A DNA stretch of 27,500 bases, taken from NCBI GenBank assembly GCA_016946835.1, contig JACVTC010000191.1:102501-130000 (forward strand), in the 5' to 3' direction. The notes below the pieces were generated by a model. That model ran no database searches and was not told the origin of the DNA. It worked only from the letters and a program-made list of their open reading frames with translations. The DNA is from Neocallimastix lanati (nom. inval.). Its lineage: Eukaryota > Neocallimastigomycota > Neocallimastigomycetes > Neocallimastigales > Neocallimastigaceae. Position numbers and translations under genes: made by a program. Below, piece by piece: positions 2,527-27,255 of the stretch (positions within the stretch are counted from its first letter, which is position 1; the number at the start of each line of letters is the position of its first letter).

Positions 2527-5206
2527 TTAAAGCTATAAAATAATTAAAAATAAATTAATAGAAAATAAATAAATTGAAAGTTAATAAAAAATGATTAATA
2601 TAATAATAATAATAATAATAATAAAAACTTACTTCAGCATAGGAAGCGTTTATCTTTTCATTGTTCTTCTTAGCCTTGAAGTATTGAACAACAGGTAAGG
2701 TAATAGAAACAGATAACATGTAAATGGCAACAAAAGTGAATAAAATCTTACCACCTTTAGTAATTTCAAAAAGATTTAAAAAGACTTTACGATGGAAATC
2801 ACCATTGTATTCGAATTCACCACCAGTAGCATATTTTTGAAGAACAGCGTTGAAACCACCACTAATGAAAAGAATAATAGAAGTACTTAACATTTCAAAC
2901 TATATTATTATGATGATTATTAAATTTTTTATTAATTAGTATAAAAAAAAAAAATTAGTATAATTTAATTTAAAATTTTATATATTTATTATTTAATTTT
3001 CTTTCTTTCTTTCTTTATTATTTTTTTTAAATAATTTTCATATTAAATTTTATAAATTAAATAATTATTTAAAAAAAAAAAAAAAAAAACTTATTAAAAA
3101 AATTACCTTAGCACCATATTTATTAGCATCTTTAACAAAAGTAAGGAAAACAGCCATAATGATACTAAGAATAGTGTATAAAATACTGAAAATTCTAACT
3201 GGATAGAATAATTCCTTACCATTATTTAACTTTAAATCTAACATAGCATCTCTAATAACATCAAATCTATTATTCGAAGTAATTAAAAAAAAAAAAAAAA
3301 AAAAAAGAGAAAGAATAATAATAAAATAAATGTAATTTAATAATTATATATCATTCATAATAATAGTAATAGTAAATAGTAATAGTAATAATAATAAATA
3401 TATATTATTTTGGTTTATCAAATTAAAAATAGTATTGATATTAACCTGCATTTGTCATAATATTTGGCATGAAGAACAATGGAACTAACAAAGGAAATTA
3501 CCTTTTTTAAAAGATTAATATTCAAAAAAAAAAATAATAATAATAAAAAATAAAAAAAAATTTAAATAATAAATATAAGCATTATTTTGTAAGAAACATT
3601 CATTAAAATTTTGATTTTTTTATATTTAATTATTATTATTATTATTATTATTATAATTTTTTTAAAGAAATATAATAATTAAATTGAAATATTTTACAGT
3701 AGTAATGCCAATAATAAGATAGATAATTCTGTTAACTTTTCTGTGAAGATTTTGTAAGTAATTGTTAGAGTCAGATCCCTTATTTAAAGAAATACTTAAT
3801 TTACTATCAGTAACATTTTCAGCTATTATGAATTTAATATATACATATATATGTATTATGATGAATTTTAAATAAAATAAAATTTTTTTGTCATTAAATA
3901 ATTTATTTTATCATTCAATAAATAAATAAGGTTTTATTTATCAATTTAGTATTATATTACTTTAAATATTTAAATATTGAACAAAATATATATATATATA
4001 TAAATATTTAAAATAAATATATACCTTTGAAACCATCATTGTAGTAGAGTAAGACAAGACGAAGACTTCTGCAGAAGAAACTTTATATATTAAAAGAATA
4101 AATAAATATATACAATTCATATTTTTTAAAAAAGATATTTATTATTAATAAAATATAATTAAATTAAATAGGTTATTCTAATTATATACATATTAATATA
4201 AAAATAATTCTTATACTTACATAACGTTAACCATAACATTTAAGATGTTAGCATTGTACATGGAAACTATATTAATAAAGAATATAATATAATTATTATT
4301 TTTATTTTTTCTTTCCATTATATATCATACTTGACACTTATAATAAAAGTATAAAATATTAAAGTAAAAAATTTATATATAATATTATAAATTATATAAA
4401 ATATTTACATGGACATGCAATTGCCATCATTTGTGGAATCTATAATGGATAATAAAGTAATATAAAACATTAAAATTAATATAAATATATTTAATAAAAG
4501 TAAACATTCATTAATAAAAATATATAATTTTAGTATTAATTTATTATTATTAATTAAAAAATAATAAACTTACAAAACCAAGGAAGGCATTAATGAAAGT
4601 AATAATACCACCAAAGAATGTTAATCCGAAACCTCTTTCACGTACAATAGCAGAGTTACGAATTTGATAGAACCTTTAATTTTATTTTATTATTTTTTTT
4701 TAGAGAATTATATATAAATATAATAATTAATAAACAATTATTTATTGACGATGTCAAAGATATTGATAAATTTCATTTTATTAAGTTAATAAATAAATCA
4801 ATAATATAGGATTATTACTAAAATGAATAATAAAATATATATATTTTTTATACAAAATTATTATTATTATTTTTATGATTTTTTTTTTTTTTTTTATTAA
4901 ACATACAAAACTAATGAGGTAATAAAAACAACATTATATATAAGGAATAAAATGACGTAAATTATTCTTTCAAATTTGTATTCCTCTGTTATAAATCCAG
5001 TGTGTTTGTAGTTTTGAAAATCTGCGTTTTCGACGTTACTAGTATCAAATAAATTTCTCTATTTAATATTTATGGGAATATCATATTAATATCATTTTAT
5101 ATATACATATATTTATCATTATTATTTCATAATAAACTTATATATATATATACTTATATATATATATATTTTTTTTATAAGAAGGGAAATTTACCTTTTC
5201 AAACAT
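2527..5206 (-). CDS. Seven-transmembrane protein, RGS-less paralogue (11 exons, 336 aa)
   Basis: Predicted exons (minus): 5206-5195, 5058-4907, 4673-4574, 4439-4409, 4266-4221, 4080-4025, 3822-3698, 3501-3446, 3266-3107, 2899-2633, 2532-2527. All introns are GT-AG and the frame stays open to TAA. The start MFEK is followed by a hydrophilic N-terminus. Seven hydrophobic segments lie near residues 35-55, 70-91, 105-125, 163-183, 213-235, 247-268 and 299-320, so this is an integral membrane protein, presumably at the plasma membrane. Cysteines just before TM3 (AIACP) and after TM4 (YDKCR) could form the usual extracellular disulfide. It is a paralogue of the gene at 8787-12908, with identical exon boundaries and phases through exon 10. 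That gene continues into an RGS domain; here exon 11 codes one Leu and a stop. Reading through the last intron instead gives a short Tyr-rich tail and a stop, so the RGS domain is lost either way. Its ligand is unknown. No mRNA support was available. Confidence 0.8.
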
Positions 5207-6821
5207 TTTTTATTTAAAATATTATAAATATTAAAATTATATATATGATTTTTTAAATAACAAAAATTGTAATTTTGCGATGATAAAAATATTTGAATAA
5301 ATATTTATTGCTTTAAATTAATTTAAATTTTGTTTTGTTAAGATTAATGTGTGTAAAGGTATTACAATTTTTTTTTTTTTTTTTATATTTTTATGATAAA
5401 ATATTGGAATATATATATATTTCTTTTTTTCTTTTTATTATTATTATTATTTAATTTTTTTTTTTTTTAAATAACTAATAATATAAAATTTATAACTTTT
5501 TTATTATAATAGGTATATAAAAAATATATATATATAAATAATGGAATTAGAAATAAAAAAAAATATATTTATTTCTTTGTAAGATTAAAAAATAAATAAG
5601 AAGGTAATGATTATGAAGAAAAAAAAAAAATTGAAATAAAGATAATATAAATTCTTTTTTAAAAAAAAAAAGAAAGAAAAGAAAAGGGGAAAAATATTAC
5701 TATATTTGTATTAATATTAATTTTTTTTTAAAAAAAAAAAAATAAATAAATATAAATTCAAATGGTTAATATATGTATTCTATATTAAAAAATTTTTTAT
5801 TAAAAACTTTTTTTTAAAATTTTATATTATTTTAAGTTTTTAATTCATTAAATCTTAATTACTACAAAAATTATTATATATAATTAATATAAGAAAAAAT
5901 TAAAATATTAATAGTAGAAAATAAAAAAAAAAAAAAATTTTTTTTTTAATATCAGAGTATTAAATATGAATAATTACTCTTAATATATGAATACATAATA
6001 TAATTTTATATAATAATTAATTAAATTTTTATATTTTCTTATTAATTCAAGTATAAAAATAATATTAAAAAACAGAAAAAAAAAAAAAAAAAAAAGATAA
6101 TTGTATAGTTTTTTTTCAAAGTTTAATACTGATTTAAATAAAAATCAATATGAAACCAAATTAAAATTTTATTTATTATATAAACTATTTTAAAAATATG
6201 AAAAAACACAAATAAAAAATAATTAAATAATATACACACGAATTTTAATTATATATTTAAGATAAAATATTTTATTTTATCATTTAAAGAAAATATCATA
6301 ATATTCATATTTCTTTGTATTCTTTTTATTTACATTTCATTATGAGAGTTTTTCAAAATTCTTTTTTATTAATTATGTCAAAAAGATGAAAAAAAAAAAA
6401 TAAACATAAAAGATAAGAATGTTCATAGAGACTTAAATAAAAGAACAATGACCATCACTACTCCTTTAATATGTCCTTAATATGACATTTAACATTTAAC
6501 ATTGGAAATGAACAAAAAAATATAAATAAAGTTTAAAATTAATTTAATAGTGCAGGTTACACAGATAATTATAAATGTGGAAATAATTAACTTTTTTTCT
6601 TCTTTTTTTTTTTTAAATTGATTTTAAATATATATTTAATATATTATACTTCAGTAGATAATATATTTTTATTAGATTCTATTGGCTTAAAAATTTTTAA
6701 AATTATTTTATATTAAATGGCTAAGAAATAAGAAAAAAGGATTGTCAAGAAAAAATAATTTAATTAAATATTATAAATTATACATCAATAATCTTAAATA
6801 ATTAATTAATCAATAATTAAT
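5207..6821. other. AT-rich intergenic region upstream of the 7TM gene
   Basis: No supportable coding sequence on either strand. Poly(A), poly(T) and AT dinucleotide runs dominate. The part nearest 5207 must contain the promoter and 5' UTR of the minus-strand 7TM gene, but no distinct element can be picked out of such AT-rich sequence. Confidence 0.6.
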
Positions 6822-6829
6822 AAGGATTA

Positions 6830-6834
<5 letters not shown>
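6822..6834. repeat. Target-site duplication, left copy
   Basis: AAGGATTAATCAA occurs here directly before the poly(T) run and again at 7283-7295 directly after the GC-rich insert. The 13 bp match exactly, and a following T may extend this to 14. This is the signature of target-primed reverse transcription. Confidence 0.9.
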
Positions 6835-6873
<39 letters not shown>

Positions 6874-7282
6874 GACTGAAGACTTTGGTCTTCCCCATAT
6901 AGTAATATGGGTGTATGATTAACTGCCATACCGGTACGGCGTCGACGCTCTCAACTCCCCATAAGCAAAGAAACTCCATATAGAAGCACCCTACGCGATC
7001 CTCGAGGGAAAGCAGAGCCAACTATAGGTGGCGTCCTTGCCATCCCAGAGGAGCTGGACACTGTAAATCCTCTCAGACAAGGCTTACGCAATGGGATTCT
7101 AATAGTGTTAGAAATATAGAAAACTTAGAAAGTATACCTACCTGAGTATCGTTTAACCCCTAACCTTTCACGCAAAACCCAAAGGGAAAAATCGTGAAGA
7201 TATGATACTTGTGGGGGTCGATCCAGAGACCTTTGGTATGATAAGCCAACGACTTAACAACCCAGGATAAGAACTGGATGAC
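6835..7282 (-). mobile_element. tRNA-derived SINE with 36-nt poly(A) tail
   Basis: A ~412-bp GC-rich, CpG-containing block (6871-7282) sits in a very AT-rich background. On the minus strand it ends in 36 A (T at 6835-6870), and a 13-bp direct repeat flanks the whole. The minus-strand 5' end looks tRNA-like: an A-box-like stretch (TTGTTAAGTCGTTGG, about 7246-7260) and a B-box-like GGATCGACCCC (7214-7224; consensus GGTTCGANTCC). These would give an internal RNA polymerase III promoter. The body carries palindromes (TACCGGTA 6929-6936, GCGTCGACGC 6939-6948), and two perfect hairpins lie before the tail. No ORF is conserved, so it would be non-autonomous and mobilised by a LINE in trans. A diverged relative lies at 20301-20490. 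The tRNA parent is not identified. Confidence 0.8.
6878..6911 (-). other. Two adjacent perfect hairpins at the SINE 3' end
   Basis: On the plus strand GAAGAC-TTTG-GTCTTC (6878-6893) is followed without a gap by CCCATAT-AGTA-ATATGGG (6894-6911). In the SINE RNA (minus strand) these are the last structures before the tail, a usual place for features recognised by a partner LINE reverse transcriptase. The structure is seen directly; the role is inferred. Confidence 0.65.
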
Positions 7283-7295
7283 AAGGATTAATCAA
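7283..7295. repeat. Target-site duplication, right copy
   Basis: Exact second copy of the 13-mer at 6822-6834; it bounds the 5' end of the minus-strand SINE. Confidence 0.9.
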
Positions 7296-7375
7296 TAATG
7301 AGTAATAAATCATAAATCATAAATAATTGAATAATTGAATAATTAAATAATTGAATAAATGAATAATAAATAATA

Positions 7376-7800
7376 AAAAAGAGTATTTATTAATAAATAA
7401 TAAATAATAAAAAGAGTATTTATTAATAAATAATAAAAAATAAAAAAGAGTATTTATTAATAAATAATAAAAAGAGTATTTATTAATAAATAATAAATAA
7501 TAAAAAGAGTATTTATTAATAAATAATAAATAATAAAAAGAGTATTTATTAATAAATAATAAATAATAAAAAGAGTATTTATTAATAAATAATAAATAAT
7601 AAATAATAAATAATAAAAAGAGTATTTATTAATAAATAATAAAAAATAAAAAAGAGTATTTATTAATAAATAATAAATAATAAATAATAAATAATAAAAA
7701 GAGTATTTATTAATAAATAATAAATAATAAAAAGAGTATTTATTAATTAATAACAAATAATAAAAAGAGTATTTATTAATAAATAATAAATAATAAATAA
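7376..7800. repeat. Minisatellite of about 33 bp, roughly 12 units
   Basis: Units contain AAAAAGAGTATTTATTAATA followed by a variable number of AAATAAT heptamers, so spacing between units ranges from about 30 to 47 bp. The repeating LLINTLF-type peptide on the minus strand is a by-product of the 33-bp period. The array starts about 80 bp beyond the SINE 5' end. Confidence 0.9.
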
Positions 7801-8786
7801 TAAATAATAGATAATAGATAATAAAAAATTAGTAATAAAGTAGTATTTTTTAATATATAAGAAATGAAAAATATGAAATATGAAATGGTAAATAAATTTA
7901 CAATGGATTATATATTTTCCAATTTATTTTTACTTCTTTTTTTTAAGTCATTTAATAAATAAATAAACAAACCAATATATACATATACAATGAATTAAAA
8001 TTCGCTCTTTTTTTTTTTTTAAGTAAAATAAAAGTTTAAAAAAAAAATTTTTTTTTTATATATAAATATATATTCATCCTTGCATTGTATTATTATTTAT
8101 TATTAAATTATTAATTAAATCTCTTCCTATCTCTTCATATATTATTTATAGTACAAAAAAAAAAAAAAAAAAAACAAAAAAAAACTTTTTATTTTTTGTA
8201 GATCGTTCTGTTTAAATAATTTTAATTTCTTTATATGATTAAATATATATAAAAAAAATGTTTAAAGGGTATCATATATAATTTTAAAAAGAAAAAAAAA
8301 AAAAAAAAAAAGTTATTAAATTATATTATAAATAATTCATTTCATTTTTATTTATTATGTTTCTTTTTTTTTTTTATTTATTTTTTTTTTTATTTTTTAT
8401 TTTTTGTTTTTTTTTTTTTTTTTTTATTTATGAAAATTTTTTTAATATAATTAAATAATCCAATTTTATTTCTTTTTATTTTCGATCAAAGATAGAATGA
8501 TAAATATAAACTTTAATATATATTTTTTTTTTTATATTTATATTTTTATTATTAAATATTCTATATACAATAAAAATACAAATTGTACTAAAAAAATTTT
8601 GATGTATAAAAAAAAAAAAAAAAAATTGAATTTTAATAAATATGCTTATATATATATATATTAATCTTATTAAGAGAATGTTCATTATAATAATAAAAAT
8701 AAATTAAAAAAAAAAAAAAAATAATAATTATAATTATAATAATAATAATAATTATTATTTTTAAAAATTTTTTATTTTATTATTTT
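7801..8786. other. AT-rich spacer, includes 3' flank of the 7TM-RGS gene
   Basis: Poly(A)/poly(T) runs and TA repeats; nothing coding can be supported. The right end must hold the 3' UTR and poly(A) site of the minus-strand 7TM-RGS gene. Confidence 0.6.
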
Positions 8787-9012
8787 TTAATTTATGGTAT
8801 TTATAATATATTTCTCATATTTGTTTAGTAGTATTGGATAAATTGAAGAATACATTAAATCGGTGACCTCATCTTTCGCTTGATCAAAAATATCTATGGT
8901 TGGAAAATTTATTTCATTACGAATTTTTAAAACTGTTTGTCCTAAAATGTTAACTGGGGCAGGTCCATTACTATCAATAAATCTAATTAATATAATAAAT
9001 TTATATAAAATT

Positions 9013-9044
<32 letters not shown>

Positions 9045-10343
9045 TATTAATAAATAAATACATAAATAAATACATAAATAAATACATAAATAATATCAAT
9101 AATATCAATAATATCAATAATATCAATAATTTAATAATAATAAAAAAAAATTTTTTTTATTAATATTAATAACAATAATAATAGACAATAATAATATATA
9201 TAAATATTATATGCTATATTATTTAATAAGAAGTTGAATATGTAAAAAAAAAAAAAAAATAAAATAAATAAATTTATTATTTATTATTTACGTTTTATAA
9301 AAATTAATATAGTATGGAACAATGGGTTTCGGAACTAAAACGTTGGTATCAATGGAATCCGAATCCATACTTGTTTTAGAAAAGGAATTTATTTGCTCTT
9401 GATAATAACCTTCAAAATCATACTGATTAACTAATTTATCATTTCCTAATTCTTGTGCTTTTTTGAATTGAAAATAGTAACGATAAATCATATTTTGTAA
9501 AATTCGATAATTTTCCCAAAATAACACATTTTCAACTGAAAATTCTTTAATGGCAATATTTCTTAATTCATCCACTAATGTTGGTATATTTAAAACTTTA
9601 TTAAAGAATGATTTTGATGTTAAATCCTAACATAAAAAAATATATATATATACAAATAAATTAAATTATTATGATTATTATTAATTATATATTAAAGTAT
9701 TATTTTAGATTATTATTGAAGAATAATAAATGTTAAAATAATTAATAGTGATGGTTAAAATATTAATAATAAAACAAAACAAAATAAAATAAAATAAATC
9801 AAATATATATATATATATATATACAAATATATATATATATATATGTATATTTATTTCTAAATTCGATTTCCATAAAAAAAAAAAAATAAAAAAAATAAAA
9901 AATAAAAAATAAAAAAAAAAAAAATTAAATAAAATAAAATAAAATAAAAATAAAAATCTTACCTCTTCAATATATCTTCGATTAGCTATTTTAGCTTTAT
10001 AATAATGAATGAGGGGTAAAGAAATGGAAGTGAAGAGGATATAAATTGAAACAATAGTGAATAATAATTTTCCTCCTTTTGTAAATTCAAAGATATCTAA
10101 ATACACTCTACGACAACTTTCAGTATTATAATCAAAATTTTTACTGGCATTAATTTGTACAATAATATTTATGATATTAGCTAAAAAAATTAATATACAT
10201 GTACTAAGACATTCAAACTATTATAAATATATATATATATATATATAATGTTGAATATATTATTAAATAATTTATTCATATAAAAATTTGAAAAAAAAAA
10301 AAGGGAAGATTTCAAATAAAAAATTAATAATTGAAATAGAATT

Positions 10344-10380
<37 letters not shown>

Positions 10381-10434
10381 GATTTAATTAAATAAAATTT
10401 ATTTATTTTTATATTTGTTATTTATTTATTTAAT

Positions 10435-10474
<40 letters not shown>

Positions 10475-10716
10475 CTGGTAAATATATTACTTACTTTAAC
10501 ACCAAAAACATCAGAATCTTTAATAAAACTAAGTAAGATCGTCATGACTAAACTAAGAATAGTATATAAACCACCAAAAATTTGGATGAAAAAAAATAAA
10601 TTTCTTCCCTGATTCAATTTTAAACCTATCATGGCATCTTCCAATTCAATAAAACTATAAAATTTGATTAATAGATGAATATAATTTTTTATTTTATAGA
10701 TTGAAATAGATTATAA

Positions 10717-10771
<55 letters not shown>

Positions 10772-11244
10772 TTAATAATAATAAATAATAGAATTATATA
10801 TCATAAATATCATAAATATATATATATATATTTATAATTATTGGGAATTATAAAATATAATATATATATGTATATTTTTTGTTTTCTAAATACCTGCATT
10901 CATTTCTTGAGGTGGTTAAATGAATTATGACTGTAACAAGAAATGAAAAAACCTTTTGTTCATATATAATAAAATAAAATATTAAAATATTATTAATATT
11001 AAAAATAATAAAAAATAAAATAAAATAAAATAAAATAAAATAAAATAAAATAAAATAAAAAAAAAAAACAAAATAAGATAAAATAAAATAAATTAAATTA
11101 AAATAAGATAAAATAAAATAAAATAAAAAGAAAATAATTTATTATTGCTTTAATATAAAATAAAATATAAAATAATTTAATGTAAAAAAAATTATGCTTA
11201 TATTTTTATTAAATATAAGCTGATTTAATTAAATTATAAATATA

Positions 11245-11276
<32 letters not shown>

Positions 11277-12107
11277 TCATTACCGTTGGTATAATAATGA
11301 CAGCAAGAAGAACATTTTTAATTTTTTTTATTAATTTTGAAAAATAATGATTTGGTTCCCATGTTATGCGTTTATTGTTTTTTTTAACCGATGTGACTAA
11401 ATATTATTTTTATATTAATATTAATAATATTATAATAATGTATGAAAAAAAAAATTAGATAATCATAATAAAGATATATATAAATATATATATATATATA
11501 TTAAAACCCTAACAAAAATATTCTTTATTTACCTTTGTAAACATTATAATAATAGAATAAAACTATACGAAGACTTCTACAAAAAAAACTATATAGAATA
11601 ATAATAATAATATATATATATATATACATATTTTAAATTTTTCATTAACTAAAAATGATATATATAATATATATTTATATATATATATATTATTTTTTTT
11701 TTTAAAAAAGTTTTTGTATTCAAAAATGATAATAATAATAAAATAGAATAGAATATCTTTACATTAAATTAACAAGTACATTTACAAGATTTGCTTGATA
11801 TACGGATACTAATAAAATATAAATGATTAAAATAAAATAAAATAATTAAAATTTTAAAAAAAAAAAAAAAAAAAAAAAATTAATATCATATATCTTTCAT
11901 ATATCTTAATTATTATTTTTCTAATATTATACATACAAGCACATGGAACTTTCACAATTTGTGGTAACTATATGAAAATATTAATTTTTTTTTTTTTTAT
12001 ATATTAATATATTATTATATTAATATATATATATATATATGATTTTATGTGAATATATGAAGATAAAAAACATATATATACAAAGGTAAAATAAGATGAA
12101 TAAATAA

Positions 12108-12165
<58 letters not shown>

Positions 12166-12908
12166 TAAGGAATTGGAATAAAAAAAATTTTTTTTTCCAT
12201 TTCTAAATATTAATATATATATCATTAAATATTATTAAACTTACAAAACTTAATATTATATCCAAGAATGCCATAATTCCTCCACTAAATGTTAAATTAA
12301 ATCCTCTTTTATGAATTATATAAGAATAACGTAATTTATAGAATCTGCGGTAATATATATATATATATAAAGATATAAAGAATAATATATACATTAATTT
12401 TAAGAATGCTTTTTTTTTTTTTTTTTTTTTTTCCTATTAGGTATTTTAATAATATATATTAATATTTGTAATAATGAAAATTAATTAAAATTTCATATTA
12501 AGAAATAATATTTACTGTATTAAAGAAGCACTACAGAAAATAATCAATAGTACAAAAACTATTCTATAAAATATAACCTCATTCTTAAATTCAGGATTAT
12601 CTAAGAAACCCCTGTGAATATAGGTTTCAAATTCTTCTTTACTTACTACAGTAGTATTAAATAAATTTCTCTATTTTTTTTTTTTTTTTTTTTTATAAAA
12701 ATTGAATGTATATATGCAAAAAGAAATAAATATTTAGTTTTCTTTAAAAATATTAAATGGAAAAAAAAAAAAAAAAAAAAAAATCAAGTTCATTCTAATA
12801 ACTTGTCATTATTCCTTCTTTTTTTTTTATAATAATAATTTTTAAAATAATATTATTCATTTCAATAATTAAAAATTATTTTTTAAGAATAAATACCTTT
12901 TTAAGCAT
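8787..12908 (-). CDS. Seven-transmembrane protein with C-terminal RGS domain (12 exons, 505 aa)
   Basis: Predicted exons (minus): 12908-12897, 12670-12516, 12344-12245, 11967-11937, 11808-11763, 11588-11533, 11396-11284, 10952-10894, 10654-10495, 10217-9963, 9626-9292, 8982-8787. All introns are GT-AG, and the frame is open from ATG (MLKK) to TAA. Seven hydrophobic helices lie near residues 36-56, 71-92, 106-126, 161-182, 212-234, 245-265 and 295-315. An RGS domain follows (about 335-500), with the helix SFFNKVL, the signature EFSVENVLFW (E361, N362) and the later VNI and FDQAKDEV motifs. RGS domains speed GTP hydrolysis by G-alpha subunits; 7TM-RGS fusions such as plant AtRGS1 act as membrane-bound brakes on G-protein signalling. 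An insert of about 45 residues separates the two RGS halves, and part of the final helix departs from the consensus. The gene is the upstream tandem paralogue of 2527-5206. The ligand is unknown; GAP activity is inferred from the domain. Confidence 0.85.
9040..9130. repeat. Short tandem repeats in the last intron of the 7TM-RGS gene
   Basis: A run of AAATACATAAAT 12-mers (about 3-4 units) passes into four AATATCAAT nonamers, all inside the intron between exons 11 and 12. Neighbouring introns hold other arrays: (AAT)n near 10719-10770 and 12108-12162, and (TAAAA)n near 11008-11130. Confidence 0.85.
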
Positions 12909-21720: not shown

Positions 21721-24700
21721 TTATATAAAAATATTATTTGTAAATTTTAGTATTTTTGCACCATTTGAATCTTTTGTTAATATGTCGGCTAGCATGTTTT
21801 CCGTGTCTATATATTTTAGATTTATTCTTTTCTTTAATATGTTATCTCTATTGAAATGGTATCTGACATCTATATGTTTTAACTTAGTATTGATTTCACC
21901 ATTTTCCATTATACATTTACTTGCTTGATTATCAGTGTAGATTGTTATATTTAATTTCTTATTTAATATTTCTTTAATAATGTTTCTTATCCATAATATT
22001 TTCTTGACGTTTTCCGAAGTACTTATATATTCGGCCTCTGCGGTAGAAGTAGCAACGCACGTTTGTTTTTTAGATATCCAGCATATAGGACTTTTTCCCA
22101 TTAAAATAATTCCACCTGAAGTAGACTTTCTATCAATTTTATCGCCTGCGAAATCCGAGTCCGTGTATGCAATTAACTCCCCCTTTCCATCATATTTAAT
22201 TTTATAATCTTTTGTACTATTTATATATTTTAAAATATTTATTACTTTGTTCCAGTCTGAAATTGTTGGTTGTTCACATTTTCTGGAAGCTTTATTAACG
22301 GCGAAAGAGATTTCCGGCCTTGTACATTTTGATAAATAAATTAAGGATCCAATTGCACTTTTGTATATTGTTTTATCGAAAGGCTTTTTATTTTCGGATA
22401 TATCATTGTCTCCTGTGCAGGGTGTTTTTCTTTTTCGAGTATTGCTTATATTGAATTTTTCTAATATATTTTCAATAAAACTTTTCTGTGAAATTATATA
22501 ACTATTATTTTGTTTTTCTACTTTAATACCTAAAATATATTCGATTGGTCCACAATTTGATATTTTGAATTTTCTTTTAATTTTTGATATTATATCTTTG
22601 ATAAATTTTATTTCACCGGCAATGACCATGTCATCAACATAGAGTCCAATTATACATTTTGTTTTATAATTTATTGTATGTTTGAATATGCATTGTTCGG
22701 CTTTTATTTGTTCAAAATTATTATTAATTAAAAATTTTCTTATTGTTTCGTACCACTGTCTACCGGATTGCTTAAGGCCATATAATGCTTTGTTTAGTTT
22801 CCAGTATCCCCTCCCAAAGTTTATATCGCCTTTAGGAATGGTAGTGTAAATATCCTTGTCGAGAGGAGCATTAAGGTAAGCAGCCTTAATATCAAGTTGA
22901 AAAATGTCCCAATGAAAAGCAGCAGATAAAGCAAAAATGAGTTTAAGACTATCAATATTTAAAGTTGGGGAATACGTAAGATCATAATCAATACCCCATT
23001 TTTGACGGAAGCCTCTGGCAACCAGACGAGCTTTATATTTGTAAATAAAATTATTACTATCCCTCTTAGTTGCAAAAACCCATTTCGTAGAAATAATATT
23101 TTTTCCAGGAGGAACTTTTGAAACAAAAGTCATAATCTTATTTGAATATAAATTATTTAGCTCATCTTTAATGGCATTAATCCAGCAATTTTTATTTTTG
23201 CAACTAATGGCTTCATCATAGCTATTTGGAGAATCAGAATAAATAGAAGCGATCATATAAGAATCATCAATATCCAACTTTCTTCTTAAAGTTCTAAGAG
23301 TGGAAGGAATAACTGTTTTGGAATCGGGAGAATTTGGGGGTAAAGGACGTTTTCTGGAAGAATGAGAATTATTAATTTCATCGTTATTAATCATTATATC
23401 ATCCATAATTTCATTTTCATTAGATTTAATAATGTTATGAGCAATTGATGTAAGAGACTGATTATCTTGGTATAGATTATCATTGTATTGCAAATTATTA
23501 GTGGTATTGGTTGAATTGTTAAAATTGGAATTATTAGAAATATTAATATCAATTTTTCGTGAATCTTGAGTATTAGAATTATCGATGTCTTGTAAAGAAG
23601 TATCAACTGAGGAGTTGGAAATAATAGTATCATTTGAAGCCTTATTAAGAGTATAATTATTAAAAGTATTATCATTATGCGAGTTTGATAAAATAGGTAA
23701 ATTATTGGTAATTTTATTAATGGGTGTGTTGGAATTTTTAAAATTTGTAATTTTATTGTCATTGTTTGATAAAAAATTTTTATTATTAAAATTTTCATCA
23801 TTTTTTGAAAAATTTTTATTATCCATAGTTTTATTAGAAATTTCAATAATTTTATGTCGATCATTAGTATTATTATTATGATCATGTGTATTATCATTTT
23901 CCAAATTTTCAGATGAAGATTTATGTAAAATTTTATCACGTGAGGTTGATAAGGTATTATTTAAAATATTATTTATATTACTATTTGATGAACAAGGTTC
24001 TGATAAATTTATTTTGACCAATGGCTGTTTAGAAATTTTTGGTTCAATTTTTGAAAAATTTTTATTAATAAAACTTTTTTCACTTTTTTCAATATTAGAA
24101 TTTTCGTCATTTTCATTGATTTTTTCTTTGCCTTTATTTTTAGCCGAAGGAATATTTATATCACCAGAATTTATAGGGTGTTTTTTATCAATTTCATTTG
24201 ATTTTATTTCTTCATTTGGATTATTTTTAATTAAATCATTTTTTCCCACAGTATTATTTTCTTTTGATATGTTATTTTCTTCTTCATTAATGTCGTTATT
24301 TTCAATAAAATTATTATTGTCCGTTAAATTTACATTTTCATTTAAATTAATATTGTCCAAATTATTATTATTATTTTCATTGTTATTCTCATTATTGTTT
24401 TCATTTAAAACATTGTTCTCGTTATTGTCGTTAGCTATATTGATATTATTATCTTCATTTACATTATTATCTAGATTTAAATTATTATTTATGTTTAAAA
24501 TATTGTTCTCATTTAAATTGATATTTTCATTTAGAAGATTATTGTCATTATAATTATTATCGTCATTTATATTTCTATTTCTCATGTTTCTTTCATCAAG
24601 GTCCATTTTAGTAAAAGAGAAATAAGGGTCTTGGAAGCCGTTATTCGGATATTTAAAATTTCCTGGTTCTTCTTCAATGCATTCAATGTCACTAACATAA

Positions 24701-27255
24701 TTTAATTTTCTAGTTTCTTTGTCCATAATAATATACGAATATTTCTTTTTGTCAAAACCAAGAAAAATGCCTTTCCTTGAATTTGGTTGAAATTTGGATT
24801 TGTGTGGACTTTGGTCTCTGAAGTAGCAAGTGCATCCAAAAGTTCTTAAATGTTTTATATTTACTTTTTTATTATAAAATACTTCGTCAGGAATTAAATT
24901 ATTGTTTCCTGAATGTGGAATCATATTGTATAAATAACAAGCATGCTTTATCGCAAAATTCCAGAAGTTTTCCGATAATTTAGCCCAATACATAAGTGTT
25001 TTTGCTGAATTTCTAAGTGTATTATTAATTTTTTCAGCTTTTCCGTTTATTTCTGGGCAATAAGGAGGAGAATACACCTTTTCGATACCATTTTCTTTAT
25101 AATATTTGTTTATCTTTTTATTTTTATATTCCTTTCCTCCATCAGATTTAAATATTTTTATCGTATAATCCTTAAATTGATTATTTAGATAAGTAAAGAA
25201 TTCTATTATTTTATCTGGAGCTTCAGCTTTTGACTTAAGAGTAAATATCCAGACTTTTCTAGAGAATTCGTCCATCATTGTGAGAAAGTATTTCTTGTTA
25301 TTAATGGATAGATTATACGGCCCAGAAATGTCTGAATGAATTATTTCCAGGAGTTCTGTTGCCTTTGGAGTTTTCCCTTTATGAGATCCCCTCCTCATCT
25401 TAGAAATTTTGCAATCTATGCATGGAGGAGCTTTTATATTATGTAGATCTAGGTATTTAGGTAAATTACTTTGATAAAAATGGCCTAATCTTCTATGCCA
25501 TATTTCAATACTTTTGTCATCTAATTTACCTATATGCATTATATCATTTCCTATTATTTTATTACTGTTTAAATGTTGTGTTTTGATAGGAAATTGATTA
25601 TATTTAGATGATAGGAATGTACCTAGATTAGTTTTATTCTTATCCCACAATTTTAGTCTAGCTTTTTCTCCATCAGAAGAATCAATTAAAGAAATAAAAC
25701 CTGATTTTGCAAGTTCTATACCACTAATAAGATTTTTGTGAACATTTTTGGAAAATAAAACTTTTTCAAGTTTAATATATTGTTTATTTATGAAACACTC
25801 ATAAGTTCCATATCCTTCAAATTGGCAAATTGAACCATTTGCACAACACAACTTAACGGATTCATATTTAAAGTTCACAAGTAAAGATTTATCATTCGTT
25901 ACATGTTCACCGGCACCTGTATCATAAAACCATGTAACATCATCTGTTATTAAGTTACTATGATTAATAAAATCAATAGATTTATCGTATATGTTATCAA
26001 AATCACGAGTATGTTTGTTATTATTTGGAATAACCTCCAATAAATTTATATATTTATTATTTTGCTTTCTCTGATACATTAATGCTCTAGCATCCTTAAA
26101 ATCAAAGTTTTCATCGTAATTGCTGGCATTATCAGAGTAATCTTCATTTTTGGTGTATTTTGGAGTACTATTATTTCTATAATCATTATAGTTTCTTGAG
26201 TTTACCAAGTAATTTAATGATTTCTTCTCTTGTTGTTGATTTTGCCTCCCTTTTTTATTATTATGCTGATTTTTAATATTGTTTTCTTTGTTTTTAAGAT
26301 TGAAATGACATTCTTTTGTGGAATGTCCGTTCATATCACATATATGACAATAACTTTTATTTTCTTTCTTATATTTATGTTTATTTTTCTTATTGTTAAT
26401 TAAACTTGAAGGTTTTTTGTTTAATTTTGTAGTTCTTTTCCTCTTGCTAAGGTAATCAAGGTCCATAGGATCATCATCTTCATCTTTTTCTTTAATGTCA
26501 TCCCAGTTTTCAACATATGACCTTGCTGAGATAATTCTTTTGAGAGTATCTAAGTACTCATCTGCATCACTGTTCAAGTCGAATTGAACAATATTTTTAT
26601 AGTCATCAGTAAGAATGTTATATAGGTATTTTAATTTTTCCTTGTTTGTAATACCTAAAACAACTTCTTCCATTTCTACGAAAATTTCTTTCGCTTGGTC
26701 CAACATTTTAATTACTTCATTTTTGTTCTTTGGCTTTAAACTTTTGAGTATTTTAAGCCAGTACTCCATATCAGCGTTGTTGTTACCGTATTTTCCCTTG
26801 AGTTTTTCCATAATACGATAACTGTTAGTCAGACGACTTATCTCTTTAACGATTTTTTCGTCAATATTTTTTAAAATCAATAACATCAATTCGGCATCCA
26901 TTTTTATAGCCTCTTTGATAATTAATCTTTTTGTTCTATTATCCAATAATGGTTCTAGAGCATTATTGTTTACATTCTCTGGTGCGTCATTGTTTTCTCT
27001 AACAGGACGAGGTTCTTGACCAGGAATTGGGAGGTTTAAATTGTTAAGAATGTCCGTAATGACCCTGTTGGTTGGTTCATTACCGTTTGGGGCGTAAACA
27101 AAGAATTCATTATTTAGATGACTGATAATATCATCTTCTAAAAAGTCTTCAATACCTTGAGTTTTGGCAGCGGTTACAATAAAAAGTTTCCATTCGTTGA
27201 AGTTAGACTTTCCACGAAGGCGTTGGTCTTTAGCTAAAGTAGTTTCTTGAGGCAT
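21721..27255 (-). CDS. Ty1/copia gag-pol polyprotein (1844 aa, single frame)
   Basis: Gag occupies about residues 1-300, starting with the LRGKSNFNEWK motif, followed by a CCHC zinc knuckle (C303, C306, H311, C316; CX2CX4HX4C). Aspartic protease: active site FYDTGAG (D445). Integrase: zinc motif H587, H592, C612, C615, then catalytic D642, D705, E741 with DD35E spacing. An Asn-rich linker (about 880-1300) follows. Reverse transcriptase: KARLVARGF, FQLDIKAAYLNAPL, ALYGLKQS and YVDD (1539-1542). RNase H: YTDSDFAGD (D1699), STAEAEY (E1740/1742) and YTDNQAS (D1775). Order PR-IN-RT-RH defines the copia superfamily. The protein self-processes, packages the RNA, copies it and integrates the cDNA. 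All catalytic residues are present. No frameshift or readthrough stop separates gag from pol, so Gag excess must come from processing or another route. The ATG is 61 nt past the LTR. The linker is far longer than usual. Confidence 0.98.
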   Translation of the reverse strand: MPQETTLAKDQRLRGKSNFNEWKLFIVTAAKTQGIEDFLEDDIISHLNNEFFVYAPNGNEPTNRVITDILNNLNLPIPGQEPRPVRENNDAPENVNNNALEPLLDNRTKRLIIKEAIKMDAELMLLILKNIDEKIVKEISRLTNSYRIMEKLKGKYGNNNADMEYWLKILKSLKPKNKNEVIKMLDQAKEIFVEMEEVVLGITNKEKLKYLYNILTDDYKNIVQFDLNSDADEYLDTLKRIISARSYVENWDDIKEKDEDDDPMDLDYLSKRKRTTKLNKKPSSLINNKKNKHKYKKENKSYCHICDMNGHSTKECHFNLKNKENNIKNQHNNKKGRQNQQQEKKSLNYLVNSRNYNDYRNNSTPKYTKNEDYSDNASNYDENFDFKDARALMYQRKQNNKYINLLEVIPNNNKHTRDFDNIYDKSIDFINHSNLITDDVTWFYDTGAGEHVTNDKSLLVNFKYESVKLCCANGSICQFEGYGTYECFINKQYIKLEKVLFSKNVHKNLISGIELAKSGFISLIDSSDGEKARLKLWDKNKTNLGTFLSSKYNQFPIKTQHLNSNKIIGNDIMHIGKLDDKSIEIWHRRLGHFYQSNLPKYLDLHNIKAPPCIDCKISKMRRGSHKGKTPKATELLEIIHSDISGPYNLSINNKKYFLTMMDEFSRKVWIFTLKSKAEAPDKIIEFFTYLNNQFKDYTIKIFKSDGGKEYKNKKINKYYKENGIEKVYSPPYCPEINGKAEKINNTLRNSAKTLMYWAKLSENFWNFAIKHACYLYNMIPHSGNNNLIPDEVFYNKKVNIKHLRTFGCTCYFRDQSPHKSKFQPNSRKGIFLGFDKKKYSYIIMDKETRKLNYVSDIECIEEEPGNFKYPNNGFQDPYFSFTKMDLDERNMRNRNINDDNNYNDNNLLNENINLNENNILNINNNLNLDNNVNEDNNINIANDNNENNVLNENNNENNNENNNNNLDNINLNENVNLTDNNNFIENNDINEEENNISKENNTVGKNDLIKNNPNEEIKSNEIDKKHPINSGDINIPSAKNKGKEKINENDENSNIEKSEKSFINKNFSKIEPKISKQPLVKINLSEPCSSNSNINNILNNTLSTSRDKILHKSSSENLENDNTHDHNNNTNDRHKIIEISNKTMDNKNFSKNDENFNNKNFLSNNDNKITNFKNSNTPINKITNNLPILSNSHNDNTFNNYTLNKASNDTIISNSSVDTSLQDIDNSNTQDSRKIDINISNNSNFNNSTNTTNNLQYNDNLYQDNQSLTSIAHNIIKSNENEIMDDIMINNDEINNSHSSRKRPLPPNSPDSKTVIPSTLRTLRRKLDIDDSYMIASIYSDSPNSYDEAISCKNKNCWINAIKDELNNLYSNKIMTFVSKVPPGKNIISTKWVFATKRDSNNFIYKYKARLVARGFRQKWGIDYDLTYSPTLNIDSLKLIFALSAAFHWDIFQLDIKAAYLNAPLDKDIYTTIPKGDINFGRGYWKLNKALYGLKQSGRQWYETIRKFLINNNFEQIKAEQCIFKHTINYKTKCIIGLYVDDMVIAGEIKFIKDIISKIKRKFKISNCGPIEYILGIKVEKQNNSYIISQKSFIENILEKFNISNTRKRKTPCTGDNDISENKKPFDKTIYKSAIGSLIYLSKCTRPEISFAVNKASRKCEQPTISDWNKVINILKYINSTKDYKIKYDGKGELIAYTDSDFAGDKIDRKSTSGGIILMGKSPICWISKKQTCVATSTAEAEYISTSENVKKILWIRNIIKEILNKKLNITIYTDNQASKCIMENGEINTKLKHIDVRYHFNRDNILKKRINLKYIDTENMLADILTKDSNGAKILKFTNNIFI

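What the first reader, a model, noticed from the sequence alone, without database searches (positions are those of the whole stretch)
2527..12908. Tandem 7TM paralogues, one with and one without an RGS domain
Both minus-strand genes share ten intron positions with identical phases and clear protein similarity in every exon. The gene at 8787-12908 continues after exon 10 into two RGS exons; the gene at 2527-5206 stops one codon after the same intron. The pair suggests that a receptor-like membrane module was duplicated and then uncoupled from its G-protein brake. The RGS-less copy could act as a decoy, a partner, or a plain receptor.
Basis: partly seen in the sequence, partly recalled or inferred. 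Interest (0 to 1): 0.75.

Follow-up and report, generated by a model that had tools for sequence, protein, structure and literature searches.

The report
Receptor copy that lost its brake
In what looks like an anaerobic gut fungus, a large family of membrane sensor proteins that carry their own G-protein off-switch has one intact-looking member that lost the switch and also changed residues that its relatives keep, which makes it a natural test of what the sensor half does alone.

Summary
Two minus-strand genes, R (12908-8787, 12 exons, 501 aa) and L (5206-2527, 11 exons, 332 aa), share ten intron positions with identical phases; R continues into two RGS exons, L stops one codon after intron 10. 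Pfam RGS hits R at 9.4e-7 and not L. The interpretation needs changing. R and L are neighbours in an old array; R groups weakly with a copy on another contig, although an L+R pairing is not rejected (p-AU 0.156). On a midpoint-rooted tree L sits among RGS-bearing copies, so L most simply lost the domain; no remnant is detectable. Of 27 family loci found, 23 show RGS sequence, three are undetermined, and only L is shown to lack it. L looks functional: open frame, ten usable introns, second-position change still restrained. It departs at 6 of 25 residues invariant in the 19 RGS-bearing copies compared; no other copy departs at more than 2 by that strict count. Most departures lie on the predicted cytoplasmic face, but that clustering is not statistically robust. 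Best reading: a brake-less paralogue within a class VI-like (GprK/AtRGS1-type) receptor-GAP family; its signalling role is inferred.

The parts
8787..12908 (-). Gene R: 7TM-RGS protein, 12 exons, 501 aa
   Evidence: exon chain with GT..AG introns and open frame; exons 2-10 recovered with L as query
9963..12908 (-). R exons 1-10: 7TM part (12908-12897, 12670-12516, 12344-12245, 11967-11937, 11808-11763, 11576-11533, 11396-11284, 10952-10894, 10654-10495, 10217-9963)
   Evidence: seven hydrophobic stretches by Kyte-Doolittle after overlapping windows are merged by eye, the fifth and sixth touching
9292..9626 (-). R exon 11: first half of the RGS domain, with EFSVENVLFW
   Evidence: match to RGS10 2i59
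8787..8982 (-). R exon 12: second half of the RGS domain, with PVNI, and the stop
   Evidence: PF00615 9.4e-7 over aa 434-486; RGS8 match
2527..5206 (-). Gene L: 7TM protein without RGS, 11 exons, 332 aa
   Evidence: no RGS in Pfam scans
2633..5206 (-). L exons 1-10: 7TM part (5206-5195, 5058-4907, 4673-4574, 4439-4409, 4266-4221, 4068-4025, 3822-3698, 3501-3446, 3266-3107, 2899-2633)
2533..2632 (-). L intron 10, same position and phase 0 as R intron 10
2527..2532 (-). L terminal exon, one codon (Leu) and stop
   Evidence: not confirmed by transcripts
4628..4663 (-). L residues 59-70, first cytoplasmic loop by hydropathy, with Y63A (4651-4649) and Q67E (4639-4637; Q in 18 of 19 others, R has K)
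4035..4037 (-). L codon 125, N125D, start of the second cytoplasmic loop
3767..3772 (-). L codons 146-147, EP to DS in the EPN motif of the second cytoplasmic loop
3701..3703 (-). L codon 169, P169T in the fourth hydrophobic stretch
2891..2893 (-). L codon 245, C245M in FECLS at the third cytoplasmic loop edge

Best explanation
R is one member of a family of membrane-bound GAPs: a 7TM sensor part carrying a cytoplasmic RGS domain that speeds GTP hydrolysis on a G-alpha. Its contact-face motifs are intact. L is a descendant of such a 7TM-RGS gene that lost both RGS exons, kept intron 10 and ends one codon later. It still encodes an intact, selected 7TM protein with a short tail. The most likely mode of action (inferred) is as a 7TM without GAP activity that shares ligand, membrane partners or G-alpha with its RGS-bearing siblings and so raises rather than lowers G signalling when present. 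Shown: gene structures, absence of RGS in L against its presence in nearly all relatives, reading-frame integrity, restrained evolution and changed invariant residues. Inferred: direction of the change (midpoint root), membrane topology, GAP activity of R, any coupling of L, net signalling effect.
For: Gene models and phases. RGS in R by profile and by solved RGS sequences; RGS in 10 of 11 members scanned, all but L. EFSVENVLFW or a close variant in 20 of 20 RGS-bearing copies examined; a VN motif of the second half in 19 of 20, the missing one being cut short by unread sequence (for C79_439680 the script caught another VN first, its KVNI is read by eye). 23 of 27 family loci carry RGS sequence, L does not, three are undetermined. 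Tree: the intronless copies and the pair C500_37162/C79_270417, all with RGS, lie outside the group of 15 holding L and R (supports 100/100 and 94/93; midpoint root). No RGS remnant. Second- to third-position branch length for L 0.21, the 11 others 0.07-0.32, so L does not look like a dead gene. L has the highest third-position GC of those 12 copies, 0.243 against 0.120-0.209, which may mean higher expression. The genome has 51 G-alpha profile matches on 19 contigs, so targets exist. In Aspergillus fumigatus, 7TM-only GprK gave enhanced radial growth (PMC5008803, passages), so a class VI 7TM without RGS can have an effect of its own.
Against: No transcript or protein evidence. In A. oryzae the 7TM-only class VI constructs did not lower sclerotia formation, while RGS alone did (PMC10794492, passage). 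L has the longest end branch of the tree (0.99) and the highest first- to third-position ratio (0.58, others 0.19-0.44), so part of its change may be relaxed constraint. The 7TM part matches no Pfam receptor family in any of 11 members scanned (one member touches MFS_1 at 0.0026) and no solved receptor among the 33 sequences listed up to E 10 (a designed membrane protein, 6b87, at 0.0044).
Confidence: 0.55

Rival explanations
1. L is a decaying leftover: after losing the RGS exons it is expressed little or not at all and is on its way to a pseudogene.
For: Longest end branch; 6 of 25 otherwise invariant residues changed; elevated first- to third-position ratio 0.58; relics of the family exist, e.g. 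C24 near 1183826 with an in-frame stop.
Against: Open frame through ten introns with GT..AG ends; 19 of 25 invariant residues kept; second- to third-position ratio 0.21, inside the range of the RGS-bearing copies; highest GC3 of 12 copies.
Confidence: 0.2
2. L is a plain signalling receptor (a GEF) that activates G-alpha, the others being brakes; removing the RGS turned an off-switch into an on-switch.
For: Seven hydrophobic stretches and two invariant cysteines (L C97, C188) placed as in the usual receptor disulphide (the hallmark is recalled); many G-alpha matches.
Against: Cytoplasmic-face residues that might touch G-alpha are among the ones that changed in L; in the passages I saw, class VI receptors are listed only as 'potential' receptors (PMC13308352).
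Confidence: 0.15
3. The missing RGS in L is an assembly artefact: the true locus has RGS exons that were lost or collapsed.
For: Other copies in this assembly are cut by unread sequence.
Against: The window holds no N and L has its own stop codon right after intron 10; the whole-genome search with L found no second near-identical copy, the best other matches being 49% or less.
Confidence: 0.05

Closest known systems
Fungal class VI GPCRs (GprK/GprR of Aspergillus)
   Same: R: 7TM followed by a C-terminal RGS domain, similar size (501 aa against 559 for A. fumigatus GprK, RGS at 372-545; PMC5008803 passages).
   Different: Here it is a family of 27 loci, 19 of them intron-rich and clustered on four contigs, and three intronless; L lacks the RGS. 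Sequence relation of the 7TM part to GprK could not be tested.
Plant AtRGS1
   Same: 7TM joined to a cytoplasmic RGS; acts as a receptor-like GAP (PMC3386157 and PMC12017998 passages). R keeps the EN pair of the RGS contact face (that the E is AtRGS1 E320's counterpart is my inference).
   Different: Different kingdom; nothing here shows a self-activating G-alpha. In Setaria italica decay went the other way: the 7TM became a pseudogene, the RGS was kept (PMC3386157 passages).
Class C GPCRs of anaerobic gut fungi
   Same: Same kind of genome: 131 PF00003 matches in this assembly, a lower bound; about 100 such receptors reported in three gut fungi (PMC5168858 abstract and passages).
   Different: The R/L family has a short N-terminus and no PF00003 match in 11 members; profile comparison with six class C domains of this genome scores 15.2 (18.1 intron-rich alone, 13.9 intronless alone), no better than reversed controls at 18.6 and 18.8, while intron-rich against intronless scores 218.

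Membership tests
Fungal class VI GPCR (GprK-like), for R | C-terminal RGS domain after the membrane part | tested here: met
   PF00615 9.4e-7; solved RGS matches
Fungal class VI GPCR (GprK-like), for R | seven transmembrane helices | tested here: inconclusive
   seven hydrophobic stretches by simple hydropathy, fifth and sixth touching; no dedicated predictor or structure model
Fungal class VI GPCR (GprK-like), for R | 7TM sequence homologous to GprK/AtRGS1 | not testable with these tools
   no fungal or plant protein collection on hand; Pfam has no receptor match to the 7TM part
Fungal class VI GPCR (GprK-like), for L | C-terminal RGS domain | tested here: not met
   no RGS by Pfam and none downstream; L is a paralogue of such proteins, not a member by definition
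Active RGS (GAP), for R | contact motif residues kept (EN before xLFW, N of the VN motif) | tested here: met
   R FSVENVLFW and PVNI line up with RGS8 FSEENLEFW and EVNI (the first piece scores only 0.9 bits on its own); kept across copies. That these residues touch G-alpha is recalled
Active RGS (GAP), for R | stimulates GTP hydrolysis | not testable with these tools
   needs purified proteins
Class C GPCR | PF00003 7tm_3 domain | tested here: not met
   0 of 11 members at E up to 10; profile comparison at control level

The most novel reading that the evidence does not exclude
The residues that L changed (Y63, N125, E146-P147, P169 and C245 in L numbering; each invariant in the 19 RGS-bearing copies compared, the most distant of them about 23% identical to L) form the surface on which the 7TM part holds its own RGS domain or hands G-alpha to it. 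Once the RGS was lost that surface was freed, and L became a dedicated RGS-free subunit that tunes the RGS-bearing siblings of the array. That would be a natural separation of the sensor and brake halves of a class VI-type receptor.
Probability: 0.25. Interest if true: 0.65.

Novelty: new variant of a known kind. Interest (0 to 1): 0.45.

Why it matters
For fungal class VI receptors it is stated as unclear whether deletion phenotypes come from loss of the whole receptor or of the RGS domain (PMC13308352 passages), and 7TM-only constructs gave different results in two Aspergillus species. L is a naturally occurring, apparently selected 7TM-only paralogue beside many RGS-bearing siblings, and its residue changes name positions that can be mutated to ask how the two halves talk.

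Tried and rejected
Class C idea: the loop YIIRQRNFxLTFxGGI looked to me like the first loop of class C receptors (recalled); PF00003 matched none of 11 members and profile comparison was at control level. Dropped.

RGS remnant near L: none above shuffles.

L and R as sisters: the best tree does not join them, but the AU test does not reject it (p 0.156), so I do not claim rejection.

Statistical clustering of L's changes on the cytoplasmic side: p 0.035 with loop borders drawn by hand, 0.02-0.20 when borders move by up to 3 residues, 0.10-0.46 with strictly invariant columns. Suggestive only. Under looser conservation criteria C79_439680, which keeps its RGS, departs almost as often as L (6 of 37 against 7 of 33; 6 of 42 against 9 of 45 in a 15-copy set), though over the whole membrane part.

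A second RGS-less member: C24 near 1183826 is a relic fragment with an in-frame stop. A C2 copy (followed) is partial and runs into unread sequence; its RGS state is unknown and its EPN motif reads EHN. A distant relative at C24:1386716 keeps EPN and aligns to the first half of the RGS, but Pfam does not confirm an RGS in the stretch fetched. Both are counted as undetermined.

Rfam and tRNA scans of the window found nothing.

Structure prediction and fold search were not run: the tool's written rule admits proteins that the DNA gives letter for letter from the window or from loci of named tools; R and L are spliced, and the intronless relatives came from the genome search, which is not named there.

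Papers: listings only; one search returned none. Passages for PMC12842992, PMC13308352, PMC5168858, PMC3386157, PMC10794492, PMC5008803 and PMC12017998; one whole section (16) of PMC12842992. No paper in the library holds both 'Neocallimastix' and 'RGS domain'. 'Anaerobic fungi' with GPCR and RGS gave one unrelated paper.
Full report
What was checked. The window lies in a 199-Mb, 762-contig assembly (G000:C103:102501-130000) of very low G+C (0.17 in the window).

Gene models. Both genes were assembled from the minus strand. R: 12 exons, 501 aa. L: 11 exons, 332 aa. All introns begin GT and end AG. Intron phases 0,2,0,1,2,1,0,2,0,0 are the same in the two genes. A spliced alignment with the other gene's protein recovered exons 2-10, apart from one exon 6 donor in L and ragged ends of exon 10. 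Similarity is far above chance in exons 2, 3 and 5-10, weak in the 11-residue exon 4 and not significant in the 4-residue exon 1.

The RGS domain. In R the domain is split by a phase-2 intron, with a long insert in the middle. Pfam matches only its second half (aa 434-486, 9.4e-7), but RGS10 is matched by the first half and RGS8 by the second, and a profile of 11 family members finds RGS10 and RGS4 at about 2e-6. The E-N pair before xLFW and the N of VN are kept.

Census. Whole-genome searches with R, with L, with the 7TM part of C500_25849 and with the 7TM part of an intronless relative point to 27 loci with the 7TM part plus one relic. Spliced alignment shows both halves of the RGS in 15 intron-rich copies, R included (in C500_37162 and C79_270417 the two RGS exons are fused). 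One more C103 copy has exon 11 and is then cut by unread sequence. C728 is a near-copy of C103_188955 cut by its contig end, with RGS. Three intronless copies (open frames of 567, 597 and 582 residues from stop to stop; C554 twice, C632) carry RGS. Three more distant loci (C13, C84, C599) have RGS-region matches and 7TM matches but were not modelled. That makes 23 with RGS sequence. Undetermined: one C79 copy with exons 2-7 and one C2 copy with a few exons, both cut by unread sequence, and a distant C24 relative whose RGS is seen by alignment only. L is the only locus shown to lack RGS. The searches score only the best candidates, so the census is a lower bound. Further R matches confined to the RGS or TM7 region (C13:332953, C710 twice, C90, C101, C67) were not examined.

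History. A tree of 20 7TM parts (C728 and the partial C79 copy left out) separates the three intronless copies (100/100) and then the pair C500_37162/C79_270417 from a group of 15 that holds L and R (94/93). The root is at the midpoint, so 'outside' is an inference; with all 19 other rows carrying RGS, loss in L is the simplest history. L's neighbours inside the group are unresolved. R falls with C79_447149 (82/66). Forcing L+R costs 12.4 log-likelihood units, p-AU 0.156. Adding the partial C79 copy on exons 2-7 leaves L apart from a moderately supported R group (85/91). Five C103 or C500 copies pair with C79 copies at bootstrap 99 or more, in the same order along each contig (coordinates), which suggests an old segmental or larger duplication.

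Is L alive? The frame is open, ten introns have GT..AG ends, and on its end branch the ratio of second- to third-position change is 0.21 (12 of the 20 copies, 292 codons; the others 0.07-0.32). First-position change is relatively high (0.58; others 0.19-0.44) and third-position change is about one per site, so this is a coarse measure. GC3 of L, 0.243, is the highest of the 12.

What changed in L. Taking each of 20 copies in turn and counting residues invariant in all the others, L departs at 6 of 25; the next is 2 of 21, five copies at 1 of 20, and thirteen at 0 of 19. The six are Y63A, N125D, E146D, P147S, P169T and C245M. With looser criteria C79_439680, which keeps its RGS, comes close to L (6 of 37 against 7 of 33). 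The local context is ungapped for Y63, N125 and C245; the EPN motif sits at the end of a gapped loop but is present in 19 of 19 others and in the distant C24 relative, while the C2 copy of unknown RGS state reads EHN. By hand-drawn hydropathy topology five of the six lie in cytoplasmic loops or at their edge; the clustering test is not robust to the borders (p from 0.02 to 0.46 over the variants). RGS loss and these changes happened in one lineage, so their link is a hypothesis.

How it may work. Class VI receptors are described as 7TM proteins followed by an RGS sequence, and it is stated to be unclear whether the phenotypes come from the whole receptor or the RGS part (PMC13308352). In A. 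oryzae RGS alone lowered sclerotia, 7TM alone did not (PMC10794492); in A. fumigatus 7TM alone enhanced radial growth without restoring the mutant's other phenotype (PMC5008803). L resembles those 7TM-only constructs, but as a natural, maintained gene. I commit to L being a GAP-less 7TM that offsets its RGS-bearing siblings, at about even odds, with decay and direct GEF activity as rivals.

Known or new. 7TM-RGS proteins are known (class VI, AtRGS1). [quoted passage not shown] I found no paper holding 'Neocallimastix' and 'RGS domain' in the library searched. I rate it a new variant of a known kind.

Noticed in passing
window 6870-7282, minus strand: GC-rich (0.45) 413-bp element between L and R, followed by an A-run; 39 other copies, most over the same 413 bases, at 96-100% identity among 40 scored of 396 candidates. 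Looks like a young SINE-type repeat; a tRNA/B-box-like stretch is recalled, not tested, and ARAGORN and Rfam find nothing.
   Followed up: partly
window 21721-27255, minus strand: Uninterrupted 1844-aa open frame resembling a Ty1/copia-type retrotransposon polyprotein (by eye from the translation).
   Followed up: no
L012, L014, L015 (C554 twice, C632): Three intronless 7TM-RGS open frames, distant relatives of the intron-rich array (one measured at 23% to L); perhaps old retrocopies or the ancestral form.
   Followed up: partly
C103 and C500 against C79: Paired arrays of 7TM-RGS genes in the same order, five pairs at bootstrap 99 or more: an old segmental or genome duplication.
   Followed up: partly
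whole assembly: At least 131 class C 7tm_3 matches and 51 G-alpha matches on 19 contigs, a large G-protein repertoire.
   Followed up: no
window about 7370-7800, minus strand: Tandem repeats of a unit like TTATTAATAAATACTCTTTT between L and R, seen when reading the sequence.
   Followed up: no
L088 (C24 near 1183826): Relic of the 7TM part with an in-frame stop.
   Followed up: yes
L090 (C24:1386000-1388500): Distant relative (about 25% to R) that keeps the EPN loop motif and a first-half RGS-like stretch ending in a long Asn/Ser-rich region.
   Followed up: partly
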